Part shown: piece after piece, positions 2,579 to 60,358 of the stretch | Layout of the letters: each line of letters opens with the position of its first letter | Position numbering within the stretch: position 1 is the first letter of the stretch | Virus record (IMG/VR): IMGVR_UViG_3300012271_000005 | Coordinates: 1-64,000 of that record | Length of the DNA stretch: 64,000 nt | From: a virus | Direction: 5' to 3' (one strand) | Notes under the pieces: generated by a model | What the model was told of the DNA's origin: nothing | Database searches by the model: none | Seen by the model: the letters and a program-made list of their open reading frames with translations, nothing else | Translations under genes and position numbers: made by a program

Positions 2579-2598
2579 GGCGCTCTCCTTGGTGGTGT

Positions 2599-3054: not shown

Positions 3055-3143
3055 GCTATGCTCCTTGGGTGGTATTGCTCTTGTAGGGTGCGTGCCTGTA
3101 CCCCGTTTTGGGGCTCATATGACTTGCGAAAGGTACCACGGGT

Positions 3144-3722: not shown

Positions 3723-3732
3723 GAGAGCCCCC

Positions 3733-5310
3733 ATGCACGTACGCATCACCCCCAAACTTGAGCGCCAGCTCGTCTATGACGTGTGCGAGGTAGCTCGCCA
3801 GGGTCTCCTCGTGACACCCACCAAGGTTCCTAGCGTCCTGCTCAAGAAGTTGGCGGACAAGCTCGTCAAGGAGCTGGAGGTCGAGCTGAGCACGTCCAAC
3901 GCGTACCGCTTTGCACAGGACCTTCTGGGCTCTTGCCGCGTCGCGCTGTCGGTGGCGGACATCAAGTCTGCGCTCAAGCAGGCGTCGGGTGAGGATAGCC
4001 CCTCGGTGGACCGCAAGACCGCCGAGAAGCTCTCCTCGATGCTTGAGAAGGCATGTCAAGCTCTCTCCATGGACCCGGAGCGTGGTGCGGAGCGTGCGAG
4101 GCGCGGCGCGTTGAAGCTGCTGGAGCGTGATCTGGCTCTGGAGAGCTGGGCCGCCATGCAGGTCTACGATGCGGTCTTGACGGACTCTTTGATCCTTCTC
4201 GACCTCGACACGTCTCAGCTCGGGGGATACCTCTCGTCGTATGCGGGCCCGGTCCACCAAAGGGTCGCCATGCGCTACGCGTGCTCCTCGGACACGATGA
4301 ACGCGGGCTGCTCGGGGGCGTGCGCGTGTGCGTGTGACGGGTATGCGAATCAGGACGCGTGCGCGTGTGCGTCTGTGACCGCGAGCTTCCCCCGGTCCAC
4401 GGAGGTCGCGACCCGTCGGCTGCGTGCTATTGACGAAGAGGTCGAGCGCCTGAGCGTGCAGATCGAAGACCGCGAGGACATGGGAGTGTCTGCTCCTCGG
4501 ATGAGTCGAAAGCGTCGTGAGTTGATTGAAGAGCGTGCGGGGTTGATTCGTCTCCTCGCCAGCTTCGGAGTCCGCATCTCCAAGAAGCACAAGGAGAAGC
4601 CCAAGGACGTCAAGCGCTACGTTGAAGAGCACCTGGAACAGGGGATGGACGAGAGCAAGGCGTGGGCGATTGCCTGGAGCCGCTACTGTCGCAAGAGGCC
4701 CGGCAGCCCACGGTGCAAGCAGGACGGCTACTTCAAGGGACAGAAGAAAGGGGGGGCCGACGACGCCAAGGATCTTGGCGTGGACCCGTCCGACTACACG
4801 CCCGAGCAGAGGGGACAGATCATCATGGAGCGTCCGTGGCTCCACCCCCGCAGACCTGACGGCATGACCTACGTGATGAGGGCCCTGTCGGAGCCTCTCG
4901 CGCGTTGGCAGGAGTACGGGAGCGGCAAAGACAAGGTGTTCGCCGCCTACAACGACCTGCACGAGGACCTCAAGAACCTGCTCGACGTCGCCAACCGTAA
5001 GGCCATGGGCGCGACCGCCATCGGGTTCCGCAGCTCGGGCAACGGGAAGTTCCCTTCCACCCTCGGCGGCATCTCTCTGCACTCCAACCTGGAGCCGGGT
5101 CAGGCTCGACTCGGGCCCAAGTACAACCGCGCGTACCGCGTACAGGCCAAAGATGTCCTGATGCACCCGGACGTTCCCAACTCTCCTCTGGCTCGTGGCT
5201 CCTGGAAGTGGGAGCGGGAGATGGTCCTCAAGCCCAACGCCAAGCCCAAGCAGCTCTCGGAATCCGAGACGGTCAAGCTCCTCGAAAAGATCGCCAAGGG
5301 AGGGAGGTGA
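3733..5310 (+). CDS. Multidomain phage protein with Cys-Ala cluster and possible ADP-ribosyltransferase-like C-terminus
   Basis: 525 residues from the ATG at 3733; an upstream in-frame start would overlap the previous gene by 70 bp. Residues ~184-215 hold an unusual run of alternating Cys and Ala (GACACACDG, DACACAS). A conserved phage segment follows near residue 300: ESKAWAIAWSRYCRKRPGSPRC. The last ~130 residues (ISLHSNLEPGQ, YRVQAKDVLMH, WKWEREMVL) recall the S-x-S and E-x-E layout of ADP-ribosyltransferase folds. That last point is inference; no catalytic proof is visible. It overlaps the next gene as TGATG, so the two are translationally coupled. Confidence 0.6.
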   Translation: MHVRITPKLERQLVYDVCEVARQGLLVTPTKVPSVLLKKLADKLVKELEVELSTSNAYRFAQDLLGSCRVALSVADIKSALKQASGEDSPSVDRKTAEKLSSMLEKACQALSMDPERGAERARRGALKLLERDLALESWAAMQVYDAVLTDSLILLDLDTSQLGGYLSSYAGPVHQRVAMRYACSSDTMNAGCSGACACACDGYANQDACACASVTASFPRSTEVATRRLRAIDEEVERLSVQIEDREDMGVSAPRMSRKRRELIEERAGLIRLLASFGVRISKKHKEKPKDVKRYVEEHLEQGMDESKAWAIAWSRYCRKRPGSPRCKQDGYFKGQKKGGADDAKDLGVDPSDYTPEQRGQIIMERPWLHPRRPDGMTYVMRALSEPLARWQEYGSGKDKVFAAYNDLHEDLKNLLDVANRKAMGATAIGFRSSGNGKFPSTLGGISLHSNLEPGQARLGPKYNRAYRVQAKDVLMHPDVPNSPLARGSWKWEREMVLKPNAKPKQLSESETVKLLEKIAKGGR

Positions 5311-7052: not shown

Positions 7053-7541
7053 ATGACACTCTCTCAACGCGTAGCTCGCCTGTATATGGCCGGGATCTAT
7101 GAGTACACCCACCGCCTCAGGCACCATCGCTATGATGGACCCGATCGCACGTGGGCCGAGCAGCTCCAGCTCCTCATTGATACTCTCTATTTGGCTGTGG
7201 AGATGTACGACGACCGCAGCGCAAGGGAGGCAGTAGGTGCGGTCTCCCGAGACCTCCCGGCGCTCTTTGCGCACGCCCAGAACCAGGATGACATCGCCAA
7301 TGAGGAGGACCTCCTCGTGGCTCTTGATGCGACCACCGCCGCGCTCATGGACGCAGACCGCATTGAACATGAGGTCGTCACCGAGGTAGCCGTCGCACTG
7401 GAAGCCGTTCTCAGCTCCGGTGATCTGGACGAGATCCCGTACTCCCTCAACGTGACTCGCATTTACGAGATCCCGTCTCCGAAGGGACTCGACCGTCGCG
7501 CAGTCCAGAAGATCGTCCGAGCCTACCGCCTCCAGCGATAA
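7053..7541 (+). CDS. Hypothetical protein, 162 aa
   Basis: Starts at ATG reading MTLSQRVARLYMAGIYEY; an upstream ATG at 7008 falls inside the preceding hairpin and was not used. The RVARLYMAG stretch resembles short N-terminal segments repeated in several proteins of this region (compare RVVRLAYTTPEL in the gene at 8260). The body is helical and acidic, with no catalytic motif. Position suggests a virion or head-associated protein. Confidence 0.55.
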   Translation: MTLSQRVARLYMAGIYEYTHRLRHHRYDGPDRTWAEQLQLLIDTLYLAVEMYDDRSAREAVGAVSRDLPALFAHAQNQDDIANEEDLLVALDATTAALMDADRIEHEVVTEVAVALEAVLSSGDLDEIPYSLNVTRIYEIPSPKGLDRRAVQKIVRAYRLQR

Positions 7542-7597
7542 GCCCTGCCAGCTCCGGTCGGTATGGATACGATCACCCACAGCACTTGAGACCTATC

Positions 7598-8248
7598 ATG
7601 AGCAACGCACTACTCAAGCCCGGCACTTACGTCCCCGATGAGCACGACGTCTTCGTACAGAAGCGTCGCAAGGCTCTGTTGCAGATGCTGGTCTTTTACG
7701 GCATGACCCTGGCGGGCCTGGGTTCGATCGCGTTCGCGGTCTATGGCGCGGAGGACCTCGGGGGAGCCTGGGTTGCCTTCGGCTTCACCATCGTGTGCTT
7801 GCTCATCTCAATCTGGGGCACGTACAGCTTCTACACGCGCGCTACCTTTGGTTATCAGATCGTGAGCGGACGAATCCGGATGCTCTTCGAGACGGTCGAC
7901 TACTACGTCCCGCCTCACATCATGGAGCCCTACCTCCTGGGTATCATGACCATGTTCGATCGGTTCTTCCTGGAGAAGTACGGGAAGCCTACACAAGATG
8001 TCGTGGAAGTACGGCTGCTCTTGTTGGGTCGTCGCCCTATCGACCCGATCAAGCGCGGCGACCCGGATAAGTTGGTCGGGACCTCGTACTTCGGCCAATC
8101 GACCAGTAACGTGTACGGCCCTTACGCTTTGAACGAGGGAGGCCTCGGATACGAGTTTCGCCTCCAGCTTTGTCACTACATCATCCCCGACACCACTGAG
8201 CCCGAGAAGCTCCAGTGGATGCTCGACAATGACCTCTACAACGACTGA
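7598..8248 (+). CDS. Membrane protein with two N-terminal TM helices
   Basis: 216 residues from the ATG at 7598. Two hydrophobic segments lie near residues 28-50 (LLQMLVFYGMTLAGLGSIAF) and 56-78 (WVAFGFTIVCLLISIWG), joined by a short acidic loop. About 135 soluble residues follow. A membrane-anchored phage protein is clear; the role is not. It is followed 11 bp later by the next gene, so it is likely cotranscribed. Confidence 0.65.
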   Translation: MSNALLKPGTYVPDEHDVFVQKRRKALLQMLVFYGMTLAGLGSIAFAVYGAEDLGGAWVAFGFTIVCLLISIWGTYSFYTRATFGYQIVSGRIRMLFETVDYYVPPHIMEPYLLGIMTMFDRFFLEKYGKPTQDVVEVRLLLLGRRPIDPIKRGDPDKLVGTSYFGQSTSNVYGPYALNEGGLGYEFRLQLCHYIIPDTTEPEKLQWMLDNDLYND

Positions 8249-8259
8249 AGGATACGACC

Positions 8260-8862
8260 ATGCCCCAGAAACTACACATCAAGATCGCCTCGGTCCCTGG
8301 ACAGGAGCGTAGCCTCTTTGATCGCGTCGTCCGACTGGCGTACACCACGCCCGAGCTGCGGCCTCAGCTCCTCCCGATGCTCAAGGATGCGGCGCGTTCG
8401 ATCGGCCTCAACACGCTCAAGGATCTCCACGAGTACCGAGGCACGTTCGCGATCCTGTCGGCGTACCGTCCGATGTCGAAGTCGGACAACAAGGCACGGC
8501 ACGGCGAGCTGATTCGTGATCTCCAGGTCATGGGGTACCGGAGCTGGTTCGACGCCAAGGGCTACTGGACCCACACCGAGAAGAGCGTGATGGTCCCCCG
8601 CATGACCTTTGGACACGCCGTGGAGCTTGGTCGCAAGTACAACCAGGATGCCGTGGTCTACAAGGGCAAGGACGGTCTCGTGGGGATCTATGACCTCCGC
8701 ACCAACACCGTTCAGGTCGCCGGCCCGAACGTCGACATCTCCTCCGACCCTGCCGATGCCGTCACGAAGTTCCGCAACACGGGCCTCACGTACGAGTTGA
8801 GCGAAGCCCACTACCCCTTCAGCGGCCCCATGACTCAGGACAAGCTCCGCTCTATGCAGTGA
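8260..8862 (+). CDS. DUF3293-like protein
   Basis: 200 residues. The N-terminus RVVRLAYTTPELRPQLLPML is a short helical module I recognise from many phage and plasmid proteins. The following segment (FAILSAYRPMSKSDNKARHGEL, KGYWTHTEKSVMVP, AVELGRKYNQDAVVYKGKDG) has the layout of DUF3293 proteins, whose function is unknown. It converges on the reverse-strand gene ending at 8852, overlapping it by 11 bp. Confidence 0.6.
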   Translation: MPQKLHIKIASVPGQERSLFDRVVRLAYTTPELRPQLLPMLKDAARSIGLNTLKDLHEYRGTFAILSAYRPMSKSDNKARHGELIRDLQVMGYRSWFDAKGYWTHTEKSVMVPRMTFGHAVELGRKYNQDAVVYKGKDGLVGIYDLRTNTVQVAGPNVDISSDPADAVTKFRNTGLTYELSEAHYPFSGPMTQDKLRSMQ

Positions 8863-9418
8863 GCCTTCCGTGGAAGTCCGCTCCCTCCGGGGCGCAGTCA
8901 CGGAGAGGGACCTCTCCAGCCTTGAAGCAAATCCAGGTCTCTCCCAGAGCCAGCCACAAGGTCCCGTCCGAAGATGCCGCGACCTGCGTGAGTTGAGAGC
9001 CTTCCAGACCTCTTCCCCAAATGGGGAGGGGGTCTTTCTCTGTGGTAGGTTCTGAACGTGCTCGGTCAAAGCTCCAACCTTCGCGTCCTACAGGGGCCCA
9101 CAAATCCAGTCTAACGGGCGGCGCTCCCTTGGCGGACAAGTACAGCGCGGTGCCTCGGTCAAACGGCTCTACGGCGACGCATCGACGTCCCAGGTCCTTT
9201 GCCAGCTCCTTGTACGCGTTCCACTCTCCTCCCGAATGGCCGAGGGCGCACCACATCAGGACCTCATGGTGCGCCAGCTCGTTATGGGAGTCCCACCTGA
9301 GGTAGCGTCCCTCCACTCCTCGAAGCTTCGCAGCTTCCACGAGCGCCGTGTCGTCTTCCCAGTTGAGGAAGTTAAGCGGTCTACCCGTCTTTGCCCGCTG
9401 TCGGTTCAAATCATCCAT
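8852..9418 (-). CDS. Hypothetical protein, 188 aa
   Basis: The ATG at 9418 overlaps the stop of the upstream gene by 8 bp, giving coupled translation; a GTG 30 bp further up is a weaker option. The protein is rich in Trp and contains WDSHNELAHHEVLMWCALGH, a His-rich stretch without an obvious known metal motif. Function unknown. It forms a two-gene unit with the zinc-ribbon gene before it. Confidence 0.55.
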   Translation of the reverse strand: MDDLNRQRAKTGRPLNFLNWEDDTALVEAAKLRGVEGRYLRWDSHNELAHHEVLMWCALGHSGGEWNAYKELAKDLGRRCVAVEPFDRGTALYLSAKGAPPVRLDLWAPVGREGWSFDRARSEPTTEKDPLPIWGRGLEGSQLTQVAASSDGTLWLALGETWICFKAGEVPLRDCAPEGADFHGRLTA

Positions 9419-9785
9419 GACCCACCACCCAGTTCCGGTCGGCCGCACGCACGCGCGACTGTATGCAGCCCTTCGTCCTCTTTTTCAGCGTCTGGAAGAC
9501 CCCCGCCTCGTGCGGAGTGGCTTCCTCAGGCATGACGAAGAAGCCTCCCGAGATTCCCTCCTTTCGCACCACATCCCGCAGCTCCTTTGCCACGTCGACG
9601 CCGTACCGAAGGTCGAGCCCGAAGTTGGGCCCTGAGGACCTCATCAGCAGCGCGCACTTCGGACAGTGCATCGTGTTTCGGTTCTTGAAGGATGGCCCGT
9701 ACTGCCCGCAGCAGTCGCAGATATCTCCTCCGTACTCCTCCCACCCAAGATGTCGGGCGAGCTTCAGATCCGTGTCTCTATCCAT
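9411..9785 (-). CDS. Small zinc-ribbon protein
   Basis: 124 residues from the ATG at 9785, behind GGAGGAG; the longer upstream frame runs through the promoter and was rejected. Near residues 20-45 it has ICDCCGQYGPSF and MHCPKCALL, a C-x-x-C ... C-x-x-C zinc ribbon. The rest is basic at the C-terminus. It may bind nucleic acid or serve as an adaptor. It is first in its unit, under a clear phage-type promoter. Confidence 0.6.
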   Translation of the reverse strand: MDRDTDLKLARHLGWEEYGGDICDCCGQYGPSFKNRNTMHCPKCALLMRSSGPNFGLDLRYGVDVAKELRDVVRKEGISGGFFVMPEEATPHEAGVFQTLKKRTKGCIQSRVRAADRNWVVGHG

Positions 9786-22769: not shown

Positions 22770-23416
22770 CCCCTCCCCGTGTACGCGGGGATGTCCCGTG
22801 CCTACCCTTGTCTACGAACGGGGCGCGGCCCCCCTCCCCGTGTACGCGGGGATGTCCCCCTTCGACGGTCACGACGACCATCGACACCAACCCCCTCCCC
22901 GTGTACGCGGGGATGTCCCCTACAACCTGGGCTCGGCTCGCTCCAGGCAAGCCCCCTCCCCGTGTACGCGGGGATGTCCCCACCCACATCACGACCTCGA
23001 AGGACTCGTTGGTCCCCTCCCCGTGTACGCGGGGATGTCCCCATGGCGTCTGTCATGGGCAACAGGATGGACTTCCCCTCCCCGTGTACGCGGGGATGTC
23101 CCCGGGTACGTGAGCGCCTTGGCGGAACCCTTCCCCGTGTACGCGGGGATGTTCCCCGTGTACGCGGGGATGTTCCCCATTACAGGGCGGCACACCCTAG
23201 GTTCATAACCCCTTCCCCGTACACGCGGGGATGTTCCCCAGACACCCCAGATCCACCTTGGCGTCCAGACCCCTTCCCCGTACACGCGGGGATGTTCCCC
23301 TCACACCGAACGAGCGAACGCCAATGTGCCCTTCCCCGTACACGCGGGGATGTTCCCACCATGCCTTTTTGGACATGCACTGATTGTCGCTTCCCCGTAT
23401 ACGCGGGGATGTTCCT
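22770..23416 (+). CRISPR. CRISPR array 1 (type I-E), 12 repeats
   Basis: Twelve 29-nt repeats whose hairpin cores begin at 22775, 22836, 22897, 22958, 23019, 23080, 23133, 23154, 23215, 23276, 23334 and 23393. Period is 61 for most (29 + 32). Repeats 1-6 carry core CCCCGTGTACGCGGGG with handle ATGTCCCC; 7-8 end ATGTTCCC; 9-11 have CCCCGTACACGCGGGG; 12 has CCCCGTATACGCGGGG and degenerates into TGTTCC copies. Repeats 7 and 8 are only 21 bp apart with no spacer, and three spacers are short (24, 29, 30 nt). Orientation follows the leader at left. Confidence 0.97.
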
Positions 23417-23468
23417 GTTCCTGTTCCGTCTCGTTCTCCTCTCTATTGCCGTGGCAAAGGAGCCTGAT

Positions 23469-46611: not shown

Positions 46612-47317
46612 CTATTCGACAGGTTCCACGCGACGGCGGTACTGGACTCCTCGGCGGTACTTCCCCCTTAAAGCCTTCAAGGGTGTGAGATCTTGGATGT
46701 GGTTGTAATCCAGGGATATCCATCCCGCCTTCACCATGCTTGCGAGAGGCTCCACGTCGTCGATGTGGTTCCCCCCAAGGTCGAGTTCCACCATCTCTAC
46801 CATTCCCGCAAGGGGCGATACGTCCTCTATTTTATTGTCCGAGAGCGTCAGGTATTCAAGCTTGGTCAGCCCTGTGATCGGGCGGGAGATCTTCGATGGC
46901 ATTTCTGTCCAGGGACGGATGCAGCATTCCGACCATCTGCGCGATAGGGGTGAGGTCTTTGATGTTCAGCTCCATCGCCTCCAACTCGACGACGTTCGTG
47001 AGGCCATGCAGCCGCGCGAAGTCCTCGGCTTCGTAGAGCGCCAAATCTGTTGTGATCTTGGGGCACAGCTCCTGGAGTTCAAAGGCGCGCTCGACCTTGC
47101 TGTGACATAAAACGGGTCTGGAGACCTTGAAGTCGAGTCCCATGACGTAGGGGAGCACCTGATCCGCGTAACGCGTCGGGTCCTCTTCCCTCATGCGGTA
47201 CAGGATGTGGTACAAGTGCGGTGCCTCCACCGGGTTCCCGGAGTGCAGGAGGCTACGGAGGTCGTGAAAAGCTTCGGCTTGCAGGGTTCGTCTCGCGTCA
47301 GGTGTGTGTGGCGGCAA
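46612..47317 (-). pseudogene. Leucine-rich-repeat protein, interrupted by a frameshift
   Basis: Four to five ~22-residue repeats of the 'L-x-x-L-x-L-x-x-N-x-I-x-D-x-x-P-L' type are visible: LTKLEYLTLSDNKIEDVSPL, VELDLGGNHIDDVEPL, ISLDYNHIQDLTPL in the distal part, and NIKDLTPIAQMVGMLH before. The frames join in the run CCCGCCCG at 46880-46886: removing one base gives a perfect IEDLPPITGLTKLEYL. So this is one gene with a +1 frameshift, or a sequencing error. The start is unclear; a TTG at 47317 is the furthest likely one. Such repeats bind proteins. Confidence 0.65.
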
Positions 47318-47696
47318 GATGAGCAAGGAAGGCTTCCACCTTGAACGGTGTGAACGTTCCGGGACCGTCCCAGTCGTCCTCAACATGTAGGTCCAAGTGC
47401 GGGCGGCCTTTGCATCGGAACGAGTAGCCCTTGTGTCCTGAGTTCGTGCGCTCAATCTCAAGACGCCAGCCCTCCTCTAGCCAGACAGCGATGGCGCCGC
47501 CCTCCAAAGATAGTGTCAGCACGTAGGGGTCACCCAGATGTGCTTGGAAGGCGTCCACGTCGCAAAAGAAGGCATCGAGGGCATCCGAAGAGGGCTCGGG
47601 CCAGTCTTCCTCATCCTCCCACCGATAGCTCAAGATCGTCATGAGGTCGGACGTGGTGTCCTGCGCTCGTGTTTTATCCCAAAAATCCCAAAACAC
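47298..47696 (-). CDS. Hypothetical protein, 132 aa
   Basis: GTG start behind AAGGAGAGC; begins VFWDFWDKTRAQDTTSDLMT. Acidic in the middle (WEDEEDWPEPSSDALDAFF), then beta strands (ALTLSLEGGAIAVWL-like). It has a good promoter. Its end overlaps the start region of the leucine-rich-repeat gene. Confidence 0.6.
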   Translation of the reverse strand: MFWDFWDKTRAQDTTSDLMTILSYRWEDEEDWPEPSSDALDAFFCDVDAFQAHLGDPYVLTLSLEGGAIAVWLEEGWRLEIERTNSGHKGYSFRCKGRPHLDLHVEDDWDGPGTFTPFKVEAFLAHLAATHT

Positions 47697-48082: not shown

Positions 48083-48538
48083 TGGGACATCCCCGCGTGC
48101 GCGGGGAACACGCTCCCCTTCGATACAGAGATCTTCTTTCTACCGGGACATCCCCGCGCACGCGGGGAACACGGGTAGAACAAGAAGATGTATGAGAGGG
48201 GATCCGGGACATCCCCGCGCACGCGGGGAACACCGGACGAGCATGGGGAGACGTATTCGCCCTACCGGGACATCCCCGCGCACGCGGGGAACACTTGAAG
48301 CTGGAAGGATGCACGAGATGTGCGTGCGGGACATCCCCGCGCACGCGGGGAACACACAGGTGTGATCACAAGAGCATGTCGCCTCATCGGGACATCCCCG
48401 CGCACGCGGGGAACACGTCAAAGCTGGTCACCTTTGGAGCGTGAACGGCGGGACATCCCCGCGCACGCGGGGAACACCATGACACCGACACACCCGCACT
48501 TGGTGCATCCGGGACATCCCCGCGCACGCGGGGAACAC
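48083..48538 (-). CRISPR. CRISPR array 2 (type I-E), 8 repeats
   Basis: Eight 29-nt repeats with exact 61-bp period; cores begin at 48091, 48152, 48213, 48274, 48335, 48396, 48457 and 48518. On the reverse strand each reads GTGTT, core CCCCGCGTGCGCGGGG, handle ATGTCCCG. The leader-distal copy has a slightly different core (CCCCGCGCACGCGGGG) and last base. Seven 32-nt spacers. Transcription runs leftwards from the leader next to cas8e. This is the most regular array in the window. Confidence 0.98.
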
Positions 48539-48657: not shown

Positions 48658-50865
48658 TCAGGAGGCCTTCTTGGTGGGGGCGCGGTAGTAGGTGCGCGTC
48701 CACTCCATCTGCGTCTGAGAGCCCCAGGTGAGGAGGCTCAGGATGAGGTCGTTGGCGTCGGCACCCTGACCCTCAATGCGTCCGAGGACGTTGCGGAGCT
48801 GGCGCCAGTGGCCGTTCAAGGTGCCTCCCGAACACAGGCGCTCGAACGAGCGCTCCTTGATGTCACGAGACTGCGCGAGGACGCGCGCGACGGGGCGGTT
48901 GCCCTTGAAGCCGGTGGGCTTGAGGCCCGCGAGCAGGACCGCCAGGAGGAACACGCGCTCCTGCAACTCGGGGGCGTTCTCACCAAGGTTACGCTCCACC
49001 ACCTTCTCCAGGGCCTTCTCCAGCAGGATGGCGGGGCGCATGTAGCGTACGTCCTGGAGGTTCTTGGCGCGAGAGAGCGCGACGCGGCCGGAGCCCTTGT
49101 CGTGGTGGAGGTTGCGCCACCACTTGTGGACCACGGAGAGGATCTCATCCTTGTGGGCGTATACGATGTTGTTCATGGGGTTCTTCTCTCTCTTGGTGGA
49201 GGTGCCGCAGAGTTTGAGGAGCTGCTTTTCGAGCCCGGCTCGTTCCCTCACGGCGGATGTGATGGTGCGGGTGTTCATGCGCGATTTGCGAGTGACACGG
49301 CCTCCAACGAGGGAGTCGAAGATCGTGAGCGCGGTGGTCGCGAGGAGGCGCTTGTAGGGCGTATAGACCATCTCCTCAAGCTCCTCCCGGTTGGTCGTGA
49401 GCTTGACCTTGGCGAGCGCGTCGTATGCAGCCTGTTCGGTGTGTGACCACAGCTCGGAGTTGTTCCGGCCTCCCAGGCAGGCGACCTTCGCGCGGAGCAC
49501 CTTATCCACCTCGGACGTGAGCTTGACCAGCGCCCCGAAGGTGTCCTCATCACGCAGAGCCTGTGAGCCCTCGAAGATGAAGATGTACTTCTCGAAGAAG
49601 CTCACCGTCTTGCCCGCAAACATGTTGAATCCGAAGACACGCAGCGGGGGAAGCCCTCCCCATACCTCATCCCAATGCTCCGCGACCTCATCGTACAGGA
49701 AGGCCTTGCGCTTGGTGTGGGTGATGATTGGGGGCGTGTGGAGGGTCTCGGAGTAGGCGTGGGAACCCAGAACGTTCCACGTGCGCCTGTTGGTGACGGT
49801 CTGCACAGCGCGGACATCTTTCACATCTTTGGGGGTCCACTTGCCGTTGACGCCCATCGTCTTGAGGTTCTTGAGGGTGGTGGCGTTGTTGGGGAGCTGC
49901 CAGACACCCGACATGGGGATGCACTGACGAGACCCCGGCAGACCTTCCCACTTCTCGGACTGCGCTGTGTAGCGCTGCCGGTTGCCCCAGGGCTGCGCAT
50001 CCACGTAGTCCAGGAGCCCGTCCTCATCCGGCTCCGGCAGGACCCACTCACGCGTGAGGTGCCAGAACGCGGTCAAGGGGTGGTAGTCCAGGTCGTGAGC
50101 GCGCCACCCCTCGATCTGACTCTCTTCGACCCAGGGGAACTCGAACTCGGGGACGGTCTCCTGTCCCCACAGAGCGTTGATTTCAGGTTCAGTGAGGATG
50201 TTGTTGAGGACCTCCTCGCAGAGGTCGCGGCCGCTGAAGACGTACCACAGGCTGCCGTTGTTTCCGTAGCCGGGTCGCGATGTGCCACGTGAGAACTTGT
50301 TCCCCGCGTCCATGCGAAACTCGGCCGCCAGGATGAACGCGATGGCGTCCCCAGGCGTCAGACGCTGCCGGGGATCACGGCCCAAGTCCATGCTGAAGGG
50401 GAGCGGCCGCGTGACCTTCTCCGAGTCGAAGTCGAAGCCTGAGGAGGAGGACCCCAGCGCGTGCGTGTTGAAGCGGTAGCGGCCTATCTCAGTGGCGCAC
50501 GGCAGGTCGGACTTCTTGATCTTTCTGATATCTTCGGTCCACTCGCGCAAGGCGGGCGTGGCCTGGAACGCACGGTACCCCGGCCCGTAGACGTCGAAGA
50601 AGTCTTCCTCACTCAGAAAGCGCTTCTTGAAGTCGAGGTTCTCGCCGCGCGTCAGGTGCATCTCGACCCACTCGTCGTCGTCCTTGGGCGCGGCCACCGT
50701 CTGGACCAGTGCCTGAATGAAGTGTCGGACGCCCTCATTCATTACGGAGTGGGGGTAGTCGAGCTTGAGGCCGGGTTCCGTGAACTCGTGCGGTCGGATG
50801 AGCTTGGACTTTCCCGTGGCGTCCTGAACCCGAATCCAAGCGTCGGTCATGAGATTGAGTGACAT
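48658..50865 (-). CDS. cas8e: Cas8e-Cas11 (Cse1-Cse2) fusion, Cascade large plus small subunit
   Basis: 735 residues against ~500 for a usual Cas8e. Residues 1-~545 follow Cas8e: NLMTDAWIRVQDATGKSK, an array of conserved segments (LPFSMDLGRDPRQRLTPGDA; VLNNILTEPEINALWGQE). Residues ~564-735 have the full Cas11/Cse2 pattern: HKWWRNLHHDKGSGRVALSR, RVFLLAVLLAGLKPTG, IKERSFERLCSGG, WRQLRNVLGRI, LILSLLTWGSQTQMEW. Cas8e reads the PAM and recruits Cas3; Cas11 forms the Cascade belly, normally two copies. The Met at residue 564 (ATG at 49176) could also allow a separate Cas11 to be made. No other cas11 is present. Confidence 0.9.
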   Translation of the reverse strand: MSLNLMTDAWIRVQDATGKSKLIRPHEFTEPGLKLDYPHSVMNEGVRHFIQALVQTVAAPKDDDEWVEMHLTRGENLDFKKRFLSEEDFFDVYGPGYRAFQATPALREWTEDIRKIKKSDLPCATEIGRYRFNTHALGSSSSGFDFDSEKVTRPLPFSMDLGRDPRQRLTPGDAIAFILAAEFRMDAGNKFSRGTSRPGYGNNGSLWYVFSGRDLCEEVLNNILTEPEINALWGQETVPEFEFPWVEESQIEGWRAHDLDYHPLTAFWHLTREWVLPEPDEDGLLDYVDAQPWGNRQRYTAQSEKWEGLPGSRQCIPMSGVWQLPNNATTLKNLKTMGVNGKWTPKDVKDVRAVQTVTNRRTWNVLGSHAYSETLHTPPIITHTKRKAFLYDEVAEHWDEVWGGLPPLRVFGFNMFAGKTVSFFEKYIFIFEGSQALRDEDTFGALVKLTSEVDKVLRAKVACLGGRNNSELWSHTEQAAYDALAKVKLTTNREELEEMVYTPYKRLLATTALTIFDSLVGGRVTRKSRMNTRTITSAVRERAGLEKQLLKLCGTSTKREKNPMNNIVYAHKDEILSVVHKWWRNLHHDKGSGRVALSRAKNLQDVRYMRPAILLEKALEKVVERNLGENAPELQERVFLLAVLLAGLKPTGFKGNRPVARVLAQSRDIKERSFERLCSGGTLNGHWRQLRNVLGRIEGQGADANDLILSLLTWGSQTQMEWTRTYYRAPTKKAS

Positions 50866-50906: not shown

Positions 50907-51617
50907 TCAGAGCGTGTGCATGTGGGCGCTAAACTCGCGCCGCACCTTGTGGGACCCTTGACGGGTCAGATCGTGGGGCACATCACGACGGAAGGTTGAC
51001 CGTCGGCTACCTTCGAGGCCAAAGTCTTCATCCCAGAACACCTGTCCCGGCACCACGGTTCGGTCAAGGTAGTAGAAGCTACTCGCCACGGCCTCCTCCA
51101 GACACTCACGCGGCGTGGTGGACTGTAGGACCCGTGGATTGAGAGGCGCGCTTGGCGGACAGCTCTTGCGGCCAAAGTAGATAGGCCAGTAGGGACGCTG
51201 GAGCGCCGCGATGATACCGTCGACGTCCTCGTCGGGTACCTGGAGCAGGACCACCCAGGTCTGGTCCTGGAGGTAGTACCTCTCCGAGGTCAGGGAGTCC
51301 GTCTTGGGGCTTTGCGGGTCCAGCTCCTCCTGGCGCGTGGTCACGTAGCCCTTGAAGCAGCGGATGAGGTGGTAGTCTCGAAGCGGCGGGGGGCTCACCG
51401 AGGCTCCCTCAAGCTGGAGCTGGACGCACGCCATCTTGATGGTGTTTGCCAGCCTCTGGTGGTGAGCCTGATCGTCACGCTCGATGCCTTGCGCGCACGC
51501 GATCATCCCGAGTATGGCCGATTTCGTCGGGCTCTGGTCCGTCGTGCGCAGCGCCGCGCGCGCCGCGTTTCCGAAGCTCATGAGAGGGGCTCGAATGTCG
51601 CAGGCGAGTGTTTGCAT
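50907..51617 (-). CDS. cas5: Cas5e, Cascade subunit
   Basis: 236 residues; ATG behind AAGGAGGTACCT. Cas5e signatures: IRAPLMSFGNAARAALRTTD at the N-terminus, PPPLRDYHLIRCFKG, SLTSERYYLQDQTWVVLL, and PYWPIYFGRKSCPPSAPL. It caps the 5' handle of the crRNA. It has its own promoter in the 64-bp gap after cas6e, so cas5 and cas8e can be expressed apart from cas3-cas7-cas6e. Confidence 0.92.
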   Translation of the reverse strand: MQTLACDIRAPLMSFGNAARAALRTTDQSPTKSAILGMIACAQGIERDDQAHHQRLANTIKMACVQLQLEGASVSPPPLRDYHLIRCFKGYVTTRQEELDPQSPKTDSLTSERYYLQDQTWVVLLQVPDEDVDGIIAALQRPYWPIYFGRKSCPPSAPLNPRVLQSTTPRECLEEAVASSFYYLDRTVVPGQVFWDEDFGLEGSRRSTFRRDVPHDLTRQGSHKVRREFSAHMHTL

Positions 51618-51681: not shown

Positions 51682-52413
51682 TCAGAGGGCCACAAGGGCG
51701 GCGGCGGGCTTGAGAAGGACAAGGCCGGCCCCGAAGGCCTTGCCCCGACCGATGCCGTTGCGCCACAGGGTCACGAACTTCTCGGGGTCGGTGACCTCGA
51801 CGCGCGCCTCAAGCTGCACGAAGTCCATCGTAATGGGGTTGCGCCGTCCCACGCCCTGCTCGGAGAACACGGGGGTCAAGGCGGTGACCCTGTGCAGCTT
51901 GAAGCCGCCGTCCTCCGAGCGCCTCTCAAGCCACTCGAAGAGGAGGGCGTCGAGGTCGCGAGGCGTCTCCCCATTCGCTTCGCACATGAGCTTCTCGTAG
52001 GTCTGGAGACCCAAACGCTTGGAGCGCCCCTTGGGCACGATCCGCTCGTCACGGGTACAGACGGTGGCGTTGACCCATGCTCGGAGGTCGAGGCCGGCAC
52101 CCATGTGCATCGTGGGCTGCTCGATCGTCTTGGTCAGAAGCTTCACGTAGCCGTGAGGGTCCGAGGGGATCTCCGTGGACTGGATGTAGAAGGAGGAGCC
52201 CTTGAAGGGGGTGAACATGAAGGGTCGGTCTTTGCGGTCCTCCACCGGGTCGAAGAGGTCCCAGACGAACTGGTGTGCGGTGTAGATGCCCTCGGACGTG
52301 TAGCGGGAGAGCTGCTCGATTCCCTTGGCCGTGAAGGTGGCGCGTGAGATGTAGAGAGGGGTCGAGGTGGGGGGTGTGGTGGTGTTGAACGGGATGTTGA
52401 CTTGCGTGCTCAT
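51682..52413 (-). CDS. cas6e: Cas6e, crRNA-processing endoribonuclease
   Basis: 243 residues from the ATG at 52413. Family features: YTAHQFVWDLFDPVEDRKDR (with the H-x-x-W element), RPFMFTPFKGSSFYI, GLDLRAWVNATVCT, and the C-terminal Gly-rich loop GIGRGKAFGAGLVLLKP. It cuts CRISPR repeats at the base of the hairpin and stays bound to the 3' end of crRNA. A repeat-like hairpin and a possible attenuator lie just upstream in its own messenger. Confidence 0.92.
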   Translation of the reverse strand: MSTQVNIPFNTTTPPTSTPLYISRATFTAKGIEQLSRYTSEGIYTAHQFVWDLFDPVEDRKDRPFMFTPFKGSSFYIQSTEIPSDPHGYVKLLTKTIEQPTMHMGAGLDLRAWVNATVCTRDERIVPKGRSKRLGLQTYEKLMCEANGETPRDLDALLFEWLERRSEDGGFKLHRVTALTPVFSEQGVGRRNPITMDFVQLEARVEVTDPEKFVTLWRNGIGRGKAFGAGLVLLKPAAALVAL

Positions 52414-52489: not shown

Positions 52490-53836
52490 TCACTCGGCGG
52501 CGGCGGTCTCGGAGGCCTCCACGGCGATACCGAGCGTCTGGTAGATGGCATCCACGATGTCATCCAGGGTCGTACACACCTCGCCGCCCGACTCCAGGGC
52601 CGTGAGGTCCTTGGTCGAGGACCACGTGAGGACACGCTCATGGTCGACGCCCACGCGGGTCACGATGCGGTTGTGGTGGTCCTCCAGGCGCGTGAGGGCC
52701 ATCTGAAGAGGATCGTTGGACTCCACAGGCACCAGGAACGCGTCGGTGTACTGAGTGTTCTGGGTCTCCCCGATGGTCACCATCAGGTAGGGGGACGGGA
52801 TGCTCGCAGCCATCGTGGACTGGTTACCCGAGGGGCGCACCATCACGAGAGCCTTGACGAAGGCGTGGATGGTCTCACGGAGGAGGTCCTCCTGACCGCT
52901 CCCGAAGCGGCGAGCCAGCTCACCGATGTGGAGGCCCACGTAGGCGTAGTTGACGCCCGAGGTGAAGCTCTTGTGGCCCATATGCGAGGCGCCCGTATTG
53001 GAGTTGAAGCAGTCCTGAGCCGAGAAGAAGTCGTCCTCCTCGGGCATCACGCCGACGCCGATGGTGTGCGCGAACTGGACGCAGGCCGCTTCATTGTCCT
53101 GTGCGAGCTGCGCGACCATGCGGCCGAAGAGGCTCACGTCGACGTTGGGCATCCTCGTGAGGTCCGTGAAGCTCTTCGCGGTCTCAGTCAGGCTCTCGAA
53201 GACGACGGAGGGGTCCGTGAAGTCCAGACCCACCAGCGCCTCGAAGCCCAGCGTCAAGACCTCCTGCTCCGCCTGCTTGAGCTTGATGGCCGAGCCGAAC
53301 ATGCGGCCGTCCTTCTTGTCGCTCTTTTTGTTCTTCTTCTTCTTGGTGTCTCCTTCGGACTCGTTCGACTCGTCGTCGAGAGCGTCCTTGGTCGAGTACG
53401 GCGTGATGCCTCCCTCGGCGTACAGGGTACCATCCGCGATGAGGCCCTTGAGGAGCGTGAGAAGCGCCGCTTCGGTCTTCTTGGTGAGCTTGGCGCCCTT
53501 GAAGCACTGCGTGAAGAAGTTCGGCGTCGTCATCATGTAGGCGAGCAGCGCGGCGGCTCGATACGACCTCTCAGCCTCCTGGCCCGCCTCGACGGCCTTC
53601 TCACTCTTGAAGACCAGGAACGATCTCGTGTTGTCGCTCATGACCTTGCGCTGACGGAGCACATCGAAGTGCATGGAGGCACGAATCGCCGCCTTCTCCG
53701 CTTGGCTGGAGATGCGGTAGCGCATGGCGTTCCCGAAGAAGGAACTCTTGGGGTTACCCGCGTCATCGCGGTTGATGTTGCTGGGGGGCAGCACACCGAG
53801 CATGTGGAACTGGAGCTTTGTTTTCACGTTCATCAT
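52490..53836 (-). CDS. cas7: Cas7e, Cascade backbone subunit
   Basis: 448 residues, longer than the ~360 usual. The N-terminus LQFHMLGVLPPSNINRDDAG followed by YRISSQAEKAAIRAS is the clear Cas7e signature. The Lys-rich segment TKKKKNKKSDKKDG near residue 185 is an insertion, in a place that may affect crRNA or DNA contacts. Six copies normally line the crRNA. The C-terminus is acidic (VEASETAAAE). Confidence 0.95.
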   Translation of the reverse strand: MMNVKTKLQFHMLGVLPPSNINRDDAGNPKSSFFGNAMRYRISSQAEKAAIRASMHFDVLRQRKVMSDNTRSFLVFKSEKAVEAGQEAERSYRAAALLAYMMTTPNFFTQCFKGAKLTKKTEAALLTLLKGLIADGTLYAEGGITPYSTKDALDDESNESEGDTKKKKNKKSDKKDGRMFGSAIKLKQAEQEVLTLGFEALVGLDFTDPSVVFESLTETAKSFTDLTRMPNVDVSLFGRMVAQLAQDNEAACVQFAHTIGVGVMPEEDDFFSAQDCFNSNTGASHMGHKSFTSGVNYAYVGLHIGELARRFGSGQEDLLRETIHAFVKALVMVRPSGNQSTMAASIPSPYLMVTIGETQNTQYTDAFLVPVESNDPLQMALTRLEDHHNRIVTRVGVDHERVLTWSSTKDLTALESGGEVCTTLDDIVDAIYQTLGIAVEASETAAAE

Positions 53837-53983: not shown

Positions 53984-56614
53984 CTAGAGGACTTGGAGTC
54001 CCAGGATGTGGTCGTAGATGAGGGTGACGGATACCGGGGCGCCCTTGGGGGAGAGCTTGGTCATGTTGACCCTCCACGCGTCGGCGGGTGCGCTGAGGTC
54101 GTCCACGGTCACGATCAACACGGAGTCGGTAGAGTGGAACGGGAGCTGCGCCAAAAGTTCGTGCTGCTCCGGGCTCGGGTCGAGCCGCTCTCCGGCCATG
54201 TACATGGGGATAGCGATGCCAGAGGCCTTGATGCCTCCGTTGTGGATACGCCGGAGTCGATCGCCGTCAACGAAGTGGACCTCCCAGATGCACGTAGGGA
54301 TGGCGTCTCGGGTGTGTATGGCCACGTTCTTACCCCACTTGCTGACCGACTCACGGTAGCTGCGGGTGAAGTCGAGAGACCCCAAAACAGCCGATGCTCG
54401 CGTCTCCTGGTCACGGGCGGTGGAGGCTTGGTGCGAGCGGGCCAGACCGGCCGGAATCAGTGCGTTGATGTCGTCCAGGATCTCACGCGTATGGGTGGGA
54501 AGCTCCCAGGACCTCAAGGCACACATCGCCGCGCTGGCGTACACACGGCCTGCATCCCCATAGACGTAAGATGTCCCCCCATGATGAGGGGAGCCGCTGA
54601 GCCATTGAGCGTGTGGAGTCCCGGCCAAGGAGGGCGTGAACAGGCCCATCTCGACGTGCACCTCTTCCCCACTCTCGTGACGCAGGACGCGACCCGAGCG
54701 CTGAATCAGGAGGTCGGCCTCGCATACATCGGAGACGCCCCAGTCAAAGCTGACATCCAAAGACTCCTGGAGCACCTGCGTGCATATGACGATGTAGCCC
54801 TCACGCTCTTGGGGATCGGCGCCCTTACCGAAGCGACGCAGCACCTCGGCGTCACGTACCTCACGGTGTCCGACCGTGTAGCGAGAGTGCAGCAAGAGCA
54901 CTCGGTCATACCCTGACAAGGCTTCATAGGCCGCACAGGCGGCGCGCACGGTGTTTCGGAACCACACCACCGCCTCACCTCGGTTGGCTCGCCGGTGCAG
55001 CTCTTCCACGATGGGGTCGAGCCCACGCCGATCCTCTTCAAAGACGTTCCAGTGCACGTGCCGGATCTGGTGTGCGTCCACCGAGACCACGTTGATGTGG
55101 CCGCTGGAGCTGACGTGCGTGAGCGCGGGCAAGGGGACATCGGGGAGGTCTACAACCTCTCCTCGATACGCGGAGGCGAGCGCGCGGCGTGTCTTGGAGT
55201 CGCAGGTGGCGCTCATGGCGATCACGGGCTGTCCCTGTCGCCCGCAGTAGGCGAGCAGGTTACAGAGCAGAGGGAGCATGTGAGCGTCGAAGGCGTGGAC
55301 CTCATCTATCAGAAGCACGGTACGGGTGAGCGCGCTCAGTCGCATGGGCGCAAAGTATCGCCCGATCGTCGCCAGGAGGGCTTGGTCTATTGTGCAGACA
55401 TTGATTTGCGAGAACATGCTCTGTCGGGAGGACTTGAGCAGCCACTCGGAGGCGCTAATCAGGCCTCCATTCGAGTTGCGTTGAGCCTTCCACGGCTTGA
55501 ATTCACTTCGAGTCGAGTGAATGAGCGCCATCGTGACGGGCTCATCAAAGGTTGCCTCCGTCCAGGCGTGCGCACGCCCGTAGAGGCCGTTGGCGGTAGC
55601 GCGAGTAGGCAACGCCAACGTCAGCCCTTTGTAGTCGCCATCACGCATCATCTGACGCGCGAGCGCGAGCCCTACCTCCGTCTTACCCGCCCCCGTAGAG
55701 GCCTCGATGAGGACAAACCCGTCCGCAGAACTCAAGAGGGTCTCAGCACCTACCTGGAGAGGCCGAGGTTCCCAGGTATCGTCGAGGAGACCGCTCCAGA
55801 AGGAGTAGGTGGTAGAGAGGGGCGTGTAGAGGATCTCCACGTCTGTACACGCCCTCTCCGCTTGAGGCTGTGCGATGGTCTCCCAATAAGCTCTCGGGTC
55901 CATACGCGCGCCACGCAGCGGGAAGTATTCAGGCGTGGAGCCCAGCCAATCCGAGATCATCCCGACGCCCGCCAGGAGGTAGCTCGCGAAAGGCAGGTCC
56001 GGAGGGTTGGAGTAGTCGCCACGCATGGGTCCAAATACGCCCTGGATGATTTCGGAGAGGTACGCAGTCAGGCGCTCGTCGCACCCAGGCACTCCCCACT
56101 GGAGCTGAGCCGTACGTGGGGTGGCGCCTTCTCGCTTCTGATGAGGCAAGGCGTAGCCGTGATGGCTCAGCGCGCTATGCAGCAGCGTCGTGATGTGGCG
56201 TCGTTCCTGACGCCCAGTACCGCTCTTGAGGTACTCCCGGATCACGTTCCTGCGTTCCCATCCCACCAGATCGTGACGGGCTTCGGTCTCACGCGCACCA
56301 TCAGGCTGGGGGGTGATATCCAGGAGCGTACAGGCGGGTGCGCTTCGAGCCTGGAAGTTGTCCGTGAGCTTACCGATGTCATGGCAAGCGTAGAGCATGG
56401 GGAGGTCATGCCACAGGTCGTACATGCTCACACCCAAGGCCTCCGACAAGGGACGCCACCAACGCTCCTCGTGCCTGAGCAAGTGATTCACGACCGCCGC
56501 GACGTCGAGGTTATGATACACCACGCGGTGAATGGCAGTCACGGCCTCTTGTGAGCCGGGAGGCTGGTCTGTCTTGGCCCAACAGTCCCACATACCGATA
56601 GGTTTGGTCGTCAT
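53984..56614 (-). CDS. cas3: Cas3, HD nuclease-helicase
   Basis: 876 residues, usual length. The HD nuclease domain is at the N-terminus (MWDCWAKTDQPPGSQEAVTA; YACHDIGKLTDNFQ). Helicase motifs: EASTGAGKTEVGLALARQMM (Walker A), LLIDEVHAFDAHML (DEVH), IAMSATCDSK (motif III), CTQVLQESLDVSFD and LIQRSGRVLRHE (motif VI). Cas3 is recruited by Cascade and degrades target DNA. All key residues seen are intact, so interference should work. Its ATG overlaps the upstream stop (ATGA). Confidence 0.96.
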   Translation of the reverse strand: MTTKPIGMWDCWAKTDQPPGSQEAVTAIHRVVYHNLDVAAVVNHLLRHEERWWRPLSEALGVSMYDLWHDLPMLYACHDIGKLTDNFQARSAPACTLLDITPQPDGARETEARHDLVGWERRNVIREYLKSGTGRQERRHITTLLHSALSHHGYALPHQKREGATPRTAQLQWGVPGCDERLTAYLSEIIQGVFGPMRGDYSNPPDLPFASYLLAGVGMISDWLGSTPEYFPLRGARMDPRAYWETIAQPQAERACTDVEILYTPLSTTYSFWSGLLDDTWEPRPLQVGAETLLSSADGFVLIEASTGAGKTEVGLALARQMMRDGDYKGLTLALPTRATANGLYGRAHAWTEATFDEPVTMALIHSTRSEFKPWKAQRNSNGGLISASEWLLKSSRQSMFSQINVCTIDQALLATIGRYFAPMRLSALTRTVLLIDEVHAFDAHMLPLLCNLLAYCGRQGQPVIAMSATCDSKTRRALASAYRGEVVDLPDVPLPALTHVSSSGHINVVSVDAHQIRHVHWNVFEEDRRGLDPIVEELHRRANRGEAVVWFRNTVRAACAAYEALSGYDRVLLLHSRYTVGHREVRDAEVLRRFGKGADPQEREGYIVICTQVLQESLDVSFDWGVSDVCEADLLIQRSGRVLRHESGEEVHVEMGLFTPSLAGTPHAQWLSGSPHHGGTSYVYGDAGRVYASAAMCALRSWELPTHTREILDDINALIPAGLARSHQASTARDQETRASAVLGSLDFTRSYRESVSKWGKNVAIHTRDAIPTCIWEVHFVDGDRLRRIHNGGIKASGIAIPMYMAGERLDPSPEQHELLAQLPFHSTDSVLIVTVDDLSAPADAWRVNMTKLSPKGAPVSVTLIYDHILGLQVL

Positions 56615-57286: not shown

Positions 57287-57295
57287 AGCTGTAAA
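57267..57295 (-). promoter_or_regulatory. Phage-family promoter of the cas operon
   Basis: Reverse strand: TTTACA, 17 bp ending CCTGTGG, TATATA. It begins where the last repeat of array 3 ends and drives zinc-ribbon, 88-aa gene, cas3 and probably cas7-cas6e. Confidence 0.8.
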
Positions 57296-57628
57296 AGGAA
57301 AACCCCACGTGTGTGGGGAAGGGGCGCGTAACTGCGGGGGAGGTCGTAGGAGCAGGGGAACATCCCCGCGTGTGCGGGGAAGGGCAACTGTATCAACTCA
57401 GCGTCCGGGAGTACGTGGGAACATCCCCGCGTGTGCGGGGAAGGGTTTTTGGGCGATCTTGCCCCTTTGGATGATCGGGGAACATCCCCGCGTGTGCGGG
57501 GAAGGGTTGAGCGTGTCGGCGGCGTCGTCGAGGGCGTAGGGGACATCCCCGCGTGTGCGGGGAAGGGGCGCTGACGCGCTCCCCCAAGACCGTGATCGTG
57601 GGGACATCCCCGCGTGTGCGGGGAAGGG
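57295..57628 (-). CRISPR. CRISPR array 3 (type I-E), 6 repeats
   Basis: Six repeats with exact 61-bp period; cores begin at 57303, 57364, 57425, 57486, 57547 and 57608. On the reverse strand: CCCTT, core CCCCGCACACGCGGGG, handle ATGTTCCC (or ATGTCCCC near the leader). The leader-distal repeat is changed to CCCCACACACGTGGGG and is followed by TTTTCCTTTT, so it can fold as a terminator. Five 32-nt spacers. It reads towards the cas operon. Confidence 0.97.
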
Positions 57629-57768
57629 TCTGTGCCAAGAAGTCACATGCGTTAGATCGCGTAAGTATTCGGTTTTCAAAGACTTCTCAGATCCAGCGCC
57701 GTTCGGTGCCACCCTTGAGCGACCTCTCCGAGGTCCTTATGGTAACCTTGGAGAGGGAGACCTGTCAA
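57629..57768 (-). promoter_or_regulatory. CRISPR leader, family A, array 3
   Basis: Reverse strand: TTGACA, 18 bp, TACCAT, then GTGGCACCGAAC, AAGTCTTTGAAAACCGAATA and ATGTGACTTCTTGGCACAG before the first repeat. The order is the same as in arrays 1 and 4. Confidence 0.8.
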
Positions 57769-57799
57769 GCCTCTTTCACAGCCTCGAAGAACACGGGGA

Positions 57800-57828
57800 G
57801 GGGACATCCCCGCGTGTACGGGGAAGAG
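57800..57828 (-). CRISPR. Solo CRISPR repeat upstream of array 3
   Basis: One repeat, reverse strand: CTCTT, core CCCCGTACACGCGGGG, handle ATGTCCCC. It is preceded by a decayed family A leader (TATGGCACAGA remains) and followed, after ~30 bp, by the array 3 promoter TTGACA. It looks like an array that lost all spacers. Confidence 0.85.
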
Positions 57829-57975
57829 TCTGTGCCATACGTGTGAACTTGAGCATGGGGAAGTCCTCAAAGAAGAAGTAGGGGTCCACGGATTTTCGAG
57901 GGTAGCGAAAAAAGCAGCATTGGTAACCTCTTTTGGCAGGGATACCACAACCACCTCCCCCACGTCAAGGGGGTA
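57829..57975 (-). promoter_or_regulatory. Decayed family A leader with phage-family promoter
   Basis: Holds the TGGCACAGA block next to the solo repeat, a GAGGTTACCAAT block like the leader -10, and, further up at 57939-57968, TTGACG, 18 bp ending GTTGTGG, TATCCC on the reverse strand. No gene is seen here. The promoter could transcribe the solo repeat and array 3. Confidence 0.6.
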
Positions 57976-59760: not shown

Positions 59761-60358
59761 CCTTTCCCCACGCACGTGGGGATGTTCCCATGTAGCAAGA
59801 CATGTAGTAGGAGGCGCTGGGCCTTTCCCCACGCACGTGGGGATGTTCCCTACAGGAGTTCCTTGGGGGCTATCTGAGGGGGCCTTTCCCCACGCACGTG
59901 GGGATGTTCCCGTGGGGCGGTCTGGATGAGGCAGGCATCCTCACCTTTCCCCACGCACGTGGGGATGTTCCGCGTCCGCATCAAGGGCCGCAACCTGGGT
60001 GGGCCCTTTCCCCACGCACGTGGGGATGTTCCCTCACCTCGAAGGGTCCCCGCCCCCTCAAAGTCCCTTTCCCCACGCACGTGGGGATGTTCCCTTCCTC
60101 CAGGATCTCAGTGTCTTCGGGAACGTCCTTTCCCCACGCACGTGGGGCTGTTCCTGTTCCTGTTCCTGTTCCTGTTCCGCCTTGGCTCCCAGGACCATCG
60201 CTCGTGACGAGCCCTTCCCCGTACACGCGGGGGTGTTCCCTCTGTGCTACCGCAGCGTCGACCTTGGCCCCCTTCCCCGCACACGCGGGGATGTCCCGTC
60301 CAAAATCGTCCGTGGTCCCCCGTGAGGCCCTCTTCCCCACGCACGTGGGGACTTTGTT
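59761..60358 (+). CRISPR. CRISPR array 4 (type I-E), 10 repeats, composite
   Basis: Cores begin at 59766, 59827, 59888, 59949, 60010, 60071, 60132, 60217, 60275 and 60335. The first seven have core CCCCACGCACGTGGGG and handle ATGTTCCC, period 61. The seventh ends in four extra TGTTCC copies, widening the gap to 85. Then come one CCCCGTACACGCGGGG, one CCCCGCACACGCGGGG and one CCCCACGCACGTGGGG repeat with irregular spacing (58 and 60), as in arrays 1 and 3. So a regular array is joined to remnants of another. Confidence 0.95.

What the first reader, a model, noticed from the sequence alone, without database searches (positions are those of the whole stretch)
48658..50865. Natural Cas8e-Cas11 (Cse1-Cse2) fusion in a phage-borne type I-E system
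The large subunit is ~230 residues longer than usual, and its last ~172 residues (from residue 564) carry the complete Cas11/Cse2 pattern (WWRNLHHDKG, LLTWGSQTQM). No separate cas11 exists in the window. Cascade normally contains one Cas8e and two Cas11, so a fusion changes the stoichiometry unless an internal start at 49176 makes free Cas11.
Basis: partly seen in the sequence, partly recalled or inferred. Interest (0 to 1): 0.85.

Follow-up and report, generated by a model that had tools for sequence, protein, structure and literature searches.

The report
Phage Cas8e fused to Cas11
A virus of bacteria carries a CRISPR interference module in which two normally separate parts of the DNA-surveillance complex are encoded as one protein, joined at the point where the second part normally starts; it is an unusual variant of a known system, and one DNA base decides whether the two genes are joined or merely overlap.

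Summary
The 735-aa ORF at 48658-50865 (-) is a type I-E Cas8e (residues 1 to about 555) followed directly by a complete Cas11e (564-735). Curated profiles, an independent 67-sequence Cas11e profile (E 8e-16) and an AlphaFold model (pLDDT 92; all confident PDB matches are CasB/Cse2) agree. The 125-kb virus record has no other Cas11 and no Cas1. None of about 170 bacterial and archaeal I-E loci surveyed is fused; one other phage contig (L022) probably is.

Its ATG is the most accessible of 31 in-frame starts, and its upstream context matches a genuine start in the same phage 15/17. ATG 49176 reads ATGA after CCCC. One C fewer would end Cas8e on the overlapping TGA, the common I-E layout (30 of 67 loci). 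So the fusion is one base from canonical: a recent mutation or a consensus error.

Most likely the gene makes two products, a Cas8e-Cas11 fusion and free Cas11, as I-B, I-C and I-D systems do, so normal stoichiometry need not change. Cas8-Cas11 fusions were mentioned once before, in HNH-type systems. New variant of a known kind; moderate interest.

The parts
48658..50865 (-). cas8e-cas11e fusion gene, 735 aa
49201..50865 (-). Cas8e (Cse1/CasA) part, residues 1 to about 555
   Evidence: Pfam PF09481 residues 4-500; 69-sequence Cas8e profile to residue 555; AlphaFold model matches E. coli and T. thermophilus CasA, best E 3e-15
48661..49176 (-). Cas11e (Cse2/CasB) part, residues 564-735; M564 aligns with Met1 of free Cas11
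   Evidence: TIGR02548 over cut-off; own profile E 7.7e-16; AlphaFold pLDDT 92, PDB matches all CasB/Cse2
   Evidence: lowest opening energy (4.4 kcal/mol) of 31 in-frame start codons; upstream context 15/17 identical to the start of the phage gene at 12106
49181..49194 (-). purine-rich Shine-Dalgarno-like stretch AAGAGAGAGAAGAA, includes a rare AGA codon
49173..49180 (-). CCCCATGA: one C fewer would end Cas8e at the TGA overlapping the Cas11 ATG
50907..51617 (-). cas5e, 236 aa, start after AAGGAGGT
   Evidence: TIGR01868 E 2e-41; start
51682..52413 (-). cas6e
   Evidence: TIGR01907 E 6e-20; start
52490..53836 (-). cas7e, 448 aa
   Evidence: Pfam PF09344 E 6e-58
53984..56614 (-). cas3 (HD nuclease-helicase), HD, GAGKT, DEVH, SAT and QRSGR motifs intact
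48083..48538 (-). CRISPR array B: 8 repeats of 29 nt, 7 spacers of 32 nt, directly after the fusion gene
57295..57832 (-). CRISPR array C upstream of cas3, variant repeats, with leader and one isolated repeat
59761..60300 (+). CRISPR array D
22770..23420 (+). CRISPR array A

Best explanation
This is a phage-borne type I-E interference module (cas3-cas7-cas6-cas5-cas8e/cas11 plus CRISPR arrays, no adaptation genes found) in which cas8e and cas11e have become one reading frame. The join is at Cas11's own start codon, probably through a one-base gain in the C run before an ancestral ATGA stop/start overlap. The gene most likely yields two products: a full-length Cas8e-Cas11 that carries one belly subunit in cis, and free Cas11 started at ATG 49176 that fills the second belly position. 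The complex would then keep about one Cas8e and two Cas11 domains, and would bind targets and recruit Cas3 as usual. Shown: both domains, the join, absence of another cas11 in the record, start-site features. Inferred: use of the internal start, assembly, function, evolutionary route.
For: Both domains by curated and own profiles and by fold. Single Cas11 in the record, no Cas1. Frame 0 scores best in every window across the join. ATG 49176 has the lowest opening energy of 31 in-frame starts (4.4 vs 6.7 kcal/mol for the gene's own start); its upstream 17 nt match the start of the 1075-aa gene at 12106 at 15/17, the next best of 2952 ATGs in the record being 11/17. Conserved Cas11 residues L34, R36, F111, L114, W151 and W159 are kept. 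Cas3 motifs intact. Internal starts making Cas11 are documented in I-B, I-C and I-D (PMC11899642, PMC12235044, PMC9123187).
Against: The fusion depends on one base in a CCCC run. A leucine-rich-repeat gene 2.3 kb away is also frameshifted near C runs, so indel errors or decay occur in this assembly. The Shine-Dalgarno-like match is moderate (-5.3 kcal/mol); several in-frame starts have stronger ones, at less accessible positions. Two otherwise conserved Cas11 positions differ (V32, S110). No close relative was found to show conservation of the join or of M564. The full-length model gives the Cas11 part with low confidence.
Confidence: 0.62

Rival explanations
1. The single frame is a one-base consensus error or a minor strain variant. 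The phage really has two overlapping genes, cas8e ending at residue 563 on the TGA of CCCATGA, and cas11e starting at that ATG, as in ordinary I-E operons.
For: Removing one C gives exactly that layout; 30 of 67 reference loci have the xTGA overlap; the start-site features at 49176 are what a separate cas11 would have; a neighbouring LRR gene shows an indel near C runs.
Against: Only one clear within-gene frameshift was seen in about 66 kb of sequence called coding, so an error in the roughly 100 nt that matter is unlikely a priori (rough estimate below 0.1%); very long intact ORFs (up to 2277 aa); another phage (L022) has a continuous large-subunit ORF of this kind that no single indel at the join would explain.
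Confidence: 0.2
2. Only the fusion protein is made. Cascade then contains one Cas11 domain per Cas8e, with a shorter or altered belly.
For: No separate cas11; Cas11 is dispensable for silencing and plasmid interference in E. coli I-E (PMC12235044), so a reduced complement could be tolerated; L022 has no ATG at its join.
Against: Met1-equivalent ATG kept with the best accessibility in the gene and a start-like context.
Confidence: 0.12
3. The module is decaying and the fusion is one of its defects.
For: No Cas1 found; a nearby frameshifted LRR gene; no spacer target found among known phages.
Against: All effector genes are intact with catalytic Cas3 motifs; array B repeats are nearly identical over 8 units; codon usage favours the reported frame throughout the join.
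Confidence: 0.06

Closest known systems
Canonical type I-E Cascade (E. coli, Thermus thermophilus)
   Same: Cas3, Cas5e, Cas6e, Cas7e, Cas8e and Cas11e homologues, 29-nt repeats with 32-nt spacers
   Different: Cas8e and Cas11e in one frame; order cas3-7-6-5-8/11 instead of cas3-8-11-7-5-6; no Cas1 found; virus record
Type I-B, I-C and I-D large-subunit genes with an internal start for Cas11
   Same: Small-subunit domain at the C-terminus of the large-subunit ORF with a start codon at its N-terminus (PMC11899642, PMC9123187)
   Different: The proteins here are Cas8e and Cse2-type Cas11e, so the resemblance is convergent; the internal product is predicted, not shown
Cas8-Cas11 fusions noted in Cas8-HNH / Cas5-HNH systems (Altae-Tran 2023, PMC10910872)
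   Same: Large subunit fused to Cas11
   Different: Those systems carry an HNH nuclease and mostly lack Cas3; here Cas3 is intact and Cas5 is plain
I-E3 (PD-(D/E)xK nuclease fused to Cas11; PMC12669027)
   Same: Cas11 as part of a fusion protein in I-E
   Different: The partner here is Cas8e, not a nuclease
L022, IMG/VR 3300034069_002177 (202.7 kb)
   Same: 684-aa large-subunit ORF running straight into cas7, no Cas11 match elsewhere in the record
   Different: Standard gene order, no ATG at the join, Cas11 similarity weak (E 0.03-0.1)

Membership tests
Type I-E CRISPR-Cas effector module | Cas8e/Cse1 large subunit | tested here: met
   PF09481 E 1.6e-18, PADLOC Cas8e, CasA fold; the NCBIfam casA model is below its cut-off
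Type I-E CRISPR-Cas effector module | Cas11e/Cse2 small subunit | tested here: met
   TIGR02548 over cut-off, CasB fold, but as part of the Cas8e ORF
Type I-E CRISPR-Cas effector module | Cas5e, Cas6e, Cas7e and Cas3 present | tested here: met
Type I-E CRISPR-Cas effector module | I-E type array, 29-nt repeat and 32-nt spacers | tested here: met
Type I-E CRISPR-Cas effector module | Separate cas11 gene in the order cas3-8-11-7-5-6 | tested here: not met
   common in the subtype rather than strictly defining
Type I-E CRISPR-Cas effector module | Adaptation genes cas1-cas2 | tested here: not met
   No Cas1 in the 125-kb record; cas2 was not searched in the whole record; the record may be incomplete. 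Not required for an effector module
Internal-start small subunit (as in I-B, I-C, I-D) | In-frame start codon at the start of the small-subunit domain | tested here: met
   M564 aligns with Met1 of Cas11
Internal-start small subunit (as in I-B, I-C, I-D) | Free Cas11 translated from that start | not testable with these tools
   Only sequence support: accessibility and start context
I-E2 (Cas5-HNH) | HNH domain in Cas5, usually no Cas3 | tested here: not met
   Cas5 has only the Cas5 domain; Cas3 intact
I-E3 | PD-(D/E)xK nuclease fused to Cas11 | tested here: not met
   No nuclease domain in the ORF

The most novel reading that the evidence does not exclude
Phage-borne I-E systems have arrived more than once (this locus and L022) at a large subunit fused to Cas11, and in this one the gene makes both the fusion and free Cas11, a convergent copy of the one-gene-two-proteins design of I-B, I-C and I-D in a lineage that normally uses two genes.
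Probability: 0.3. Interest if true: 0.6.

Novelty: new variant of a known kind. Interest (0 to 1): 0.47.

Why it matters
It gives a natural test of how many Cas11 subunits an I-E Cascade needs and whether one can be tethered to Cas8e. It would show the I-E lineage converging on the single-gene layout of I-B, I-C and I-D by a one-base step from the usual ATGA overlap. A natural Cas8e-Cas11 chain would also cut the number of parts needed to deliver I-E Cascade.

Tried and rejected
Close relatives of the fusion, Cas7 and Cas3 in IMG/VR and of the fusion and Cas7 in phage and plasmid collections: none close. A joint alignment of Cas8e and Cas11 rows against the fusion misplaced Cas8e on the Cas11 part, so the Cas11 part was modelled with its own alignment. 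Sequence of the Cas11 part alone against the PDB found nothing; the family profile did. Apparent fusion in genome G1152 (752-aa open frame) rejected: cas8e lies in another frame. Weak hits in G071, G160 and G687 showed no cas genes. Sequence profiles could not decide whether the L022 tail is Cas11. Spacers gave no convincing target in known phages and no target in the phage itself. MT835722 'Bacteriophage sp.' carries an ordinary bacterial-looking I-E operon with separate genes.

Full report
The observation. The ORF at 48658-50865 on the minus strand is real, starts with ATG and encodes 735 residues. Its first part matches the Cas8e/Cse1 family (Pfam residues 4-500, E 1.6e-18; PADLOC Cas8e). 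Its last part matches the Cas11e/Cse2 family over the curated cut-off (NCBIfam TIGR02548, 38 bits against 28.5). A Cas11e profile built from 67 other loci, without this sequence, aligns over its whole length with residues 564-734 at E 7.7e-16; shuffled sequences reach at best E 0.27. AlphaFold gives the Cas11 part with pLDDT 92 and pTM 0.88; its twenty best PDB matches are all CasB/Cse2 chains with probability 0.99-1.00, and the next match has probability 0.06. The full-length model matches CasA/Cse1 chains of E. coli, Thermus, Thermobifida and Acidimicrobium (best E 3e-15), but its Cas11 part has low confidence because few Cas11 rows could be aligned with it.

The surroundings. The window belongs to a 125,429-base record that IMG/VR holds as a virus, linear. 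PHROG matches include a DnaB-like replicative helicase, a DNA helicase and weak tail proteins, so the viral label is plausible but rests mainly on IMG/VR. The operon runs cas3, cas7e, cas6e, cas5e, cas8e-cas11e and then array B. The Cas3 HD, Walker A, DEVH, SAT and QRSGR motifs are intact. No other Cas11 and no Cas1 lie anywhere in the record. Ordinary I-E loci run cas3-8-11-7-5-6, so the order here is rearranged.

How rare it is. Of the 80 bacterial and archaeal loci with the most similar Cas7, none has Cas8e and Cas11 in one ORF; nearly all carry both genes detectably, as separate ORFs, and the rest are cut by a contig end or show no Cas8e. In 1191 genomes of three phyla, 97 Cas11e matches passed the cut-off; 96 lie in open frames of 424 aa or less, too short to hold a Cas8e as well, and the one in a longer frame (752 aa) has its cas8e in another frame. 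The two surveys share a few genomes. Of five other IMG/VR contigs with a detectable cas8e, four have a separate Cas11; the fifth, L022, has a 684-aa large-subunit ORF that runs into cas7 with no Cas11 match elsewhere in its 202.7-kb record. Its tail resembles Cas11 only weakly (E 0.03-0.1), so it is a probable, not a proven, second case.

The join. Met564 aligns with Met1 of free Cas11, and the Cas8e profile reaches residue 555, so the linker is about eight residues. Among the 31 in-frame ATG, GTG and TTG codons the ATG at 49176 lies in the least structured RNA and has the lowest opening energy, 4.4 kcal/mol against 6.7 for the gene's own start. The 17 bases before it match 15/17 those before the ATG of the 1075-aa phage gene at 12106; the next best of 2952 ATGs in the record matches 11/17. 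The purine-rich stretch there includes AGA, an arginine codon used 8 times in 655 in eleven other genes of the record. The Shine-Dalgarno pairing is moderate, and some other in-frame starts pair better. Part of this pattern would also be expected if the site had recently been the start of a separate cas11.

One base. The sequence at the join is CCCC-ATG-A. With three C instead of four, Cas8e would end at residue 563 on the TGA that overlaps the Cas11 ATG. That xTGA overlap is found in 30 of 67 reference loci. The fusion is therefore one base from the common layout. Codon usage favours the reported frame in every window across the join, but it cannot exclude an indel exactly at the boundary. 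A leucine-rich-repeat gene at 46612-47461 is frameshifted near C runs, so indels, real or erroneous, occur nearby. Long ORFs elsewhere are intact. I judge the fusion real with a probability of about 0.8.

Mechanism. I-E Cascade has one Cas8e and two Cas11 (PMC11899642). In I-B, I-C and I-D the small subunit comes from an internal start in the large-subunit gene, and I-D Cascade combines the C-terminus of Cas10d with two free Cas11d in one belly filament (PMC9123187). The simplest reading here is the same economy: the fusion supplies one Cas11 domain in cis and ATG 49176 supplies the other. A fusion-only complex with one Cas11 is possible, since E. coli I-E tolerates loss of Cas11 for plasmid interference (PMC12235044). 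None of this has been tested by experiment.

Known or new. Altae-Tran et al. 2023 write that in some cases cas8 was additionally fused to cas11 in their HNH systems (PMC10910872). The passages of the 2025 classification that were read mention HNH-Cas5 (I-E2) and nuclease-Cas11 (I-E3) but no Cas8e-Cas11 variant with Cas3 (PMC12669027). The library searched holds only open-licence papers, so an earlier report may have been missed. I file this as a new variant of type I-E.

Arrays. The record holds five arrays with 61-base spacing. Four share a leader; array B, next to the fusion gene, has its own repeat and leader. A second virus contig with no detectable cas genes and no shared proteins outside the arrays carries both leader-repeat kinds, which suggests that both were drawn from a common host.

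Noticed in passing
record G000: 22.77-23.42 kb, 48.08-48.54 kb, 57.30-57.83 kb, 59.76-60.30 kb (window) and 113.0-113.4 kb (outside the window): Five CRISPR arrays in one phage record with 29-nt repeats of several related kinds; four share a leader (AAGTCTTTGAAAACCGAATACTTACG...), the array next to the cas genes has another.
   Followed up: partly
L117-L124 (IMGVR_UViG_3300012271_000928, 127,707 bases): A second virus contig without detectable cas genes and without proteins in common outside the arrays carries both leader-repeat kinds, one leader identical in its 32-base core and the other nearly identical in sequence; possibly both drawn from a shared host.
   Followed up: partly
L022, 5891-7942: 684-aa Cas8e ORF with a C-terminal extension, no separate cas11 found in the record: probable independent fusion in another large phage contig, with no ATG at the join.
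   Followed up: partly
window 46612-47461 (-): A leucine-rich-repeat gene split between two frames near C runs at about 46.86 kb: a pseudogene or an assembly indel.
   Followed up: partly
L016 about 7154-9684 and L020 about 2123-4606: Two related virus contigs with cas6e-cas7e-cas5e side by side but no detectable cas8e, cas11, cas3 or cas1 in the stretch held.
   Followed up: no
L007 (MT835722.1): A GenBank 'Bacteriophage sp.' scaffold carries a complete I-E operon with separate genes and adaptation genes among genes that look bacterial; probably a bacterial contig.
   Followed up: no
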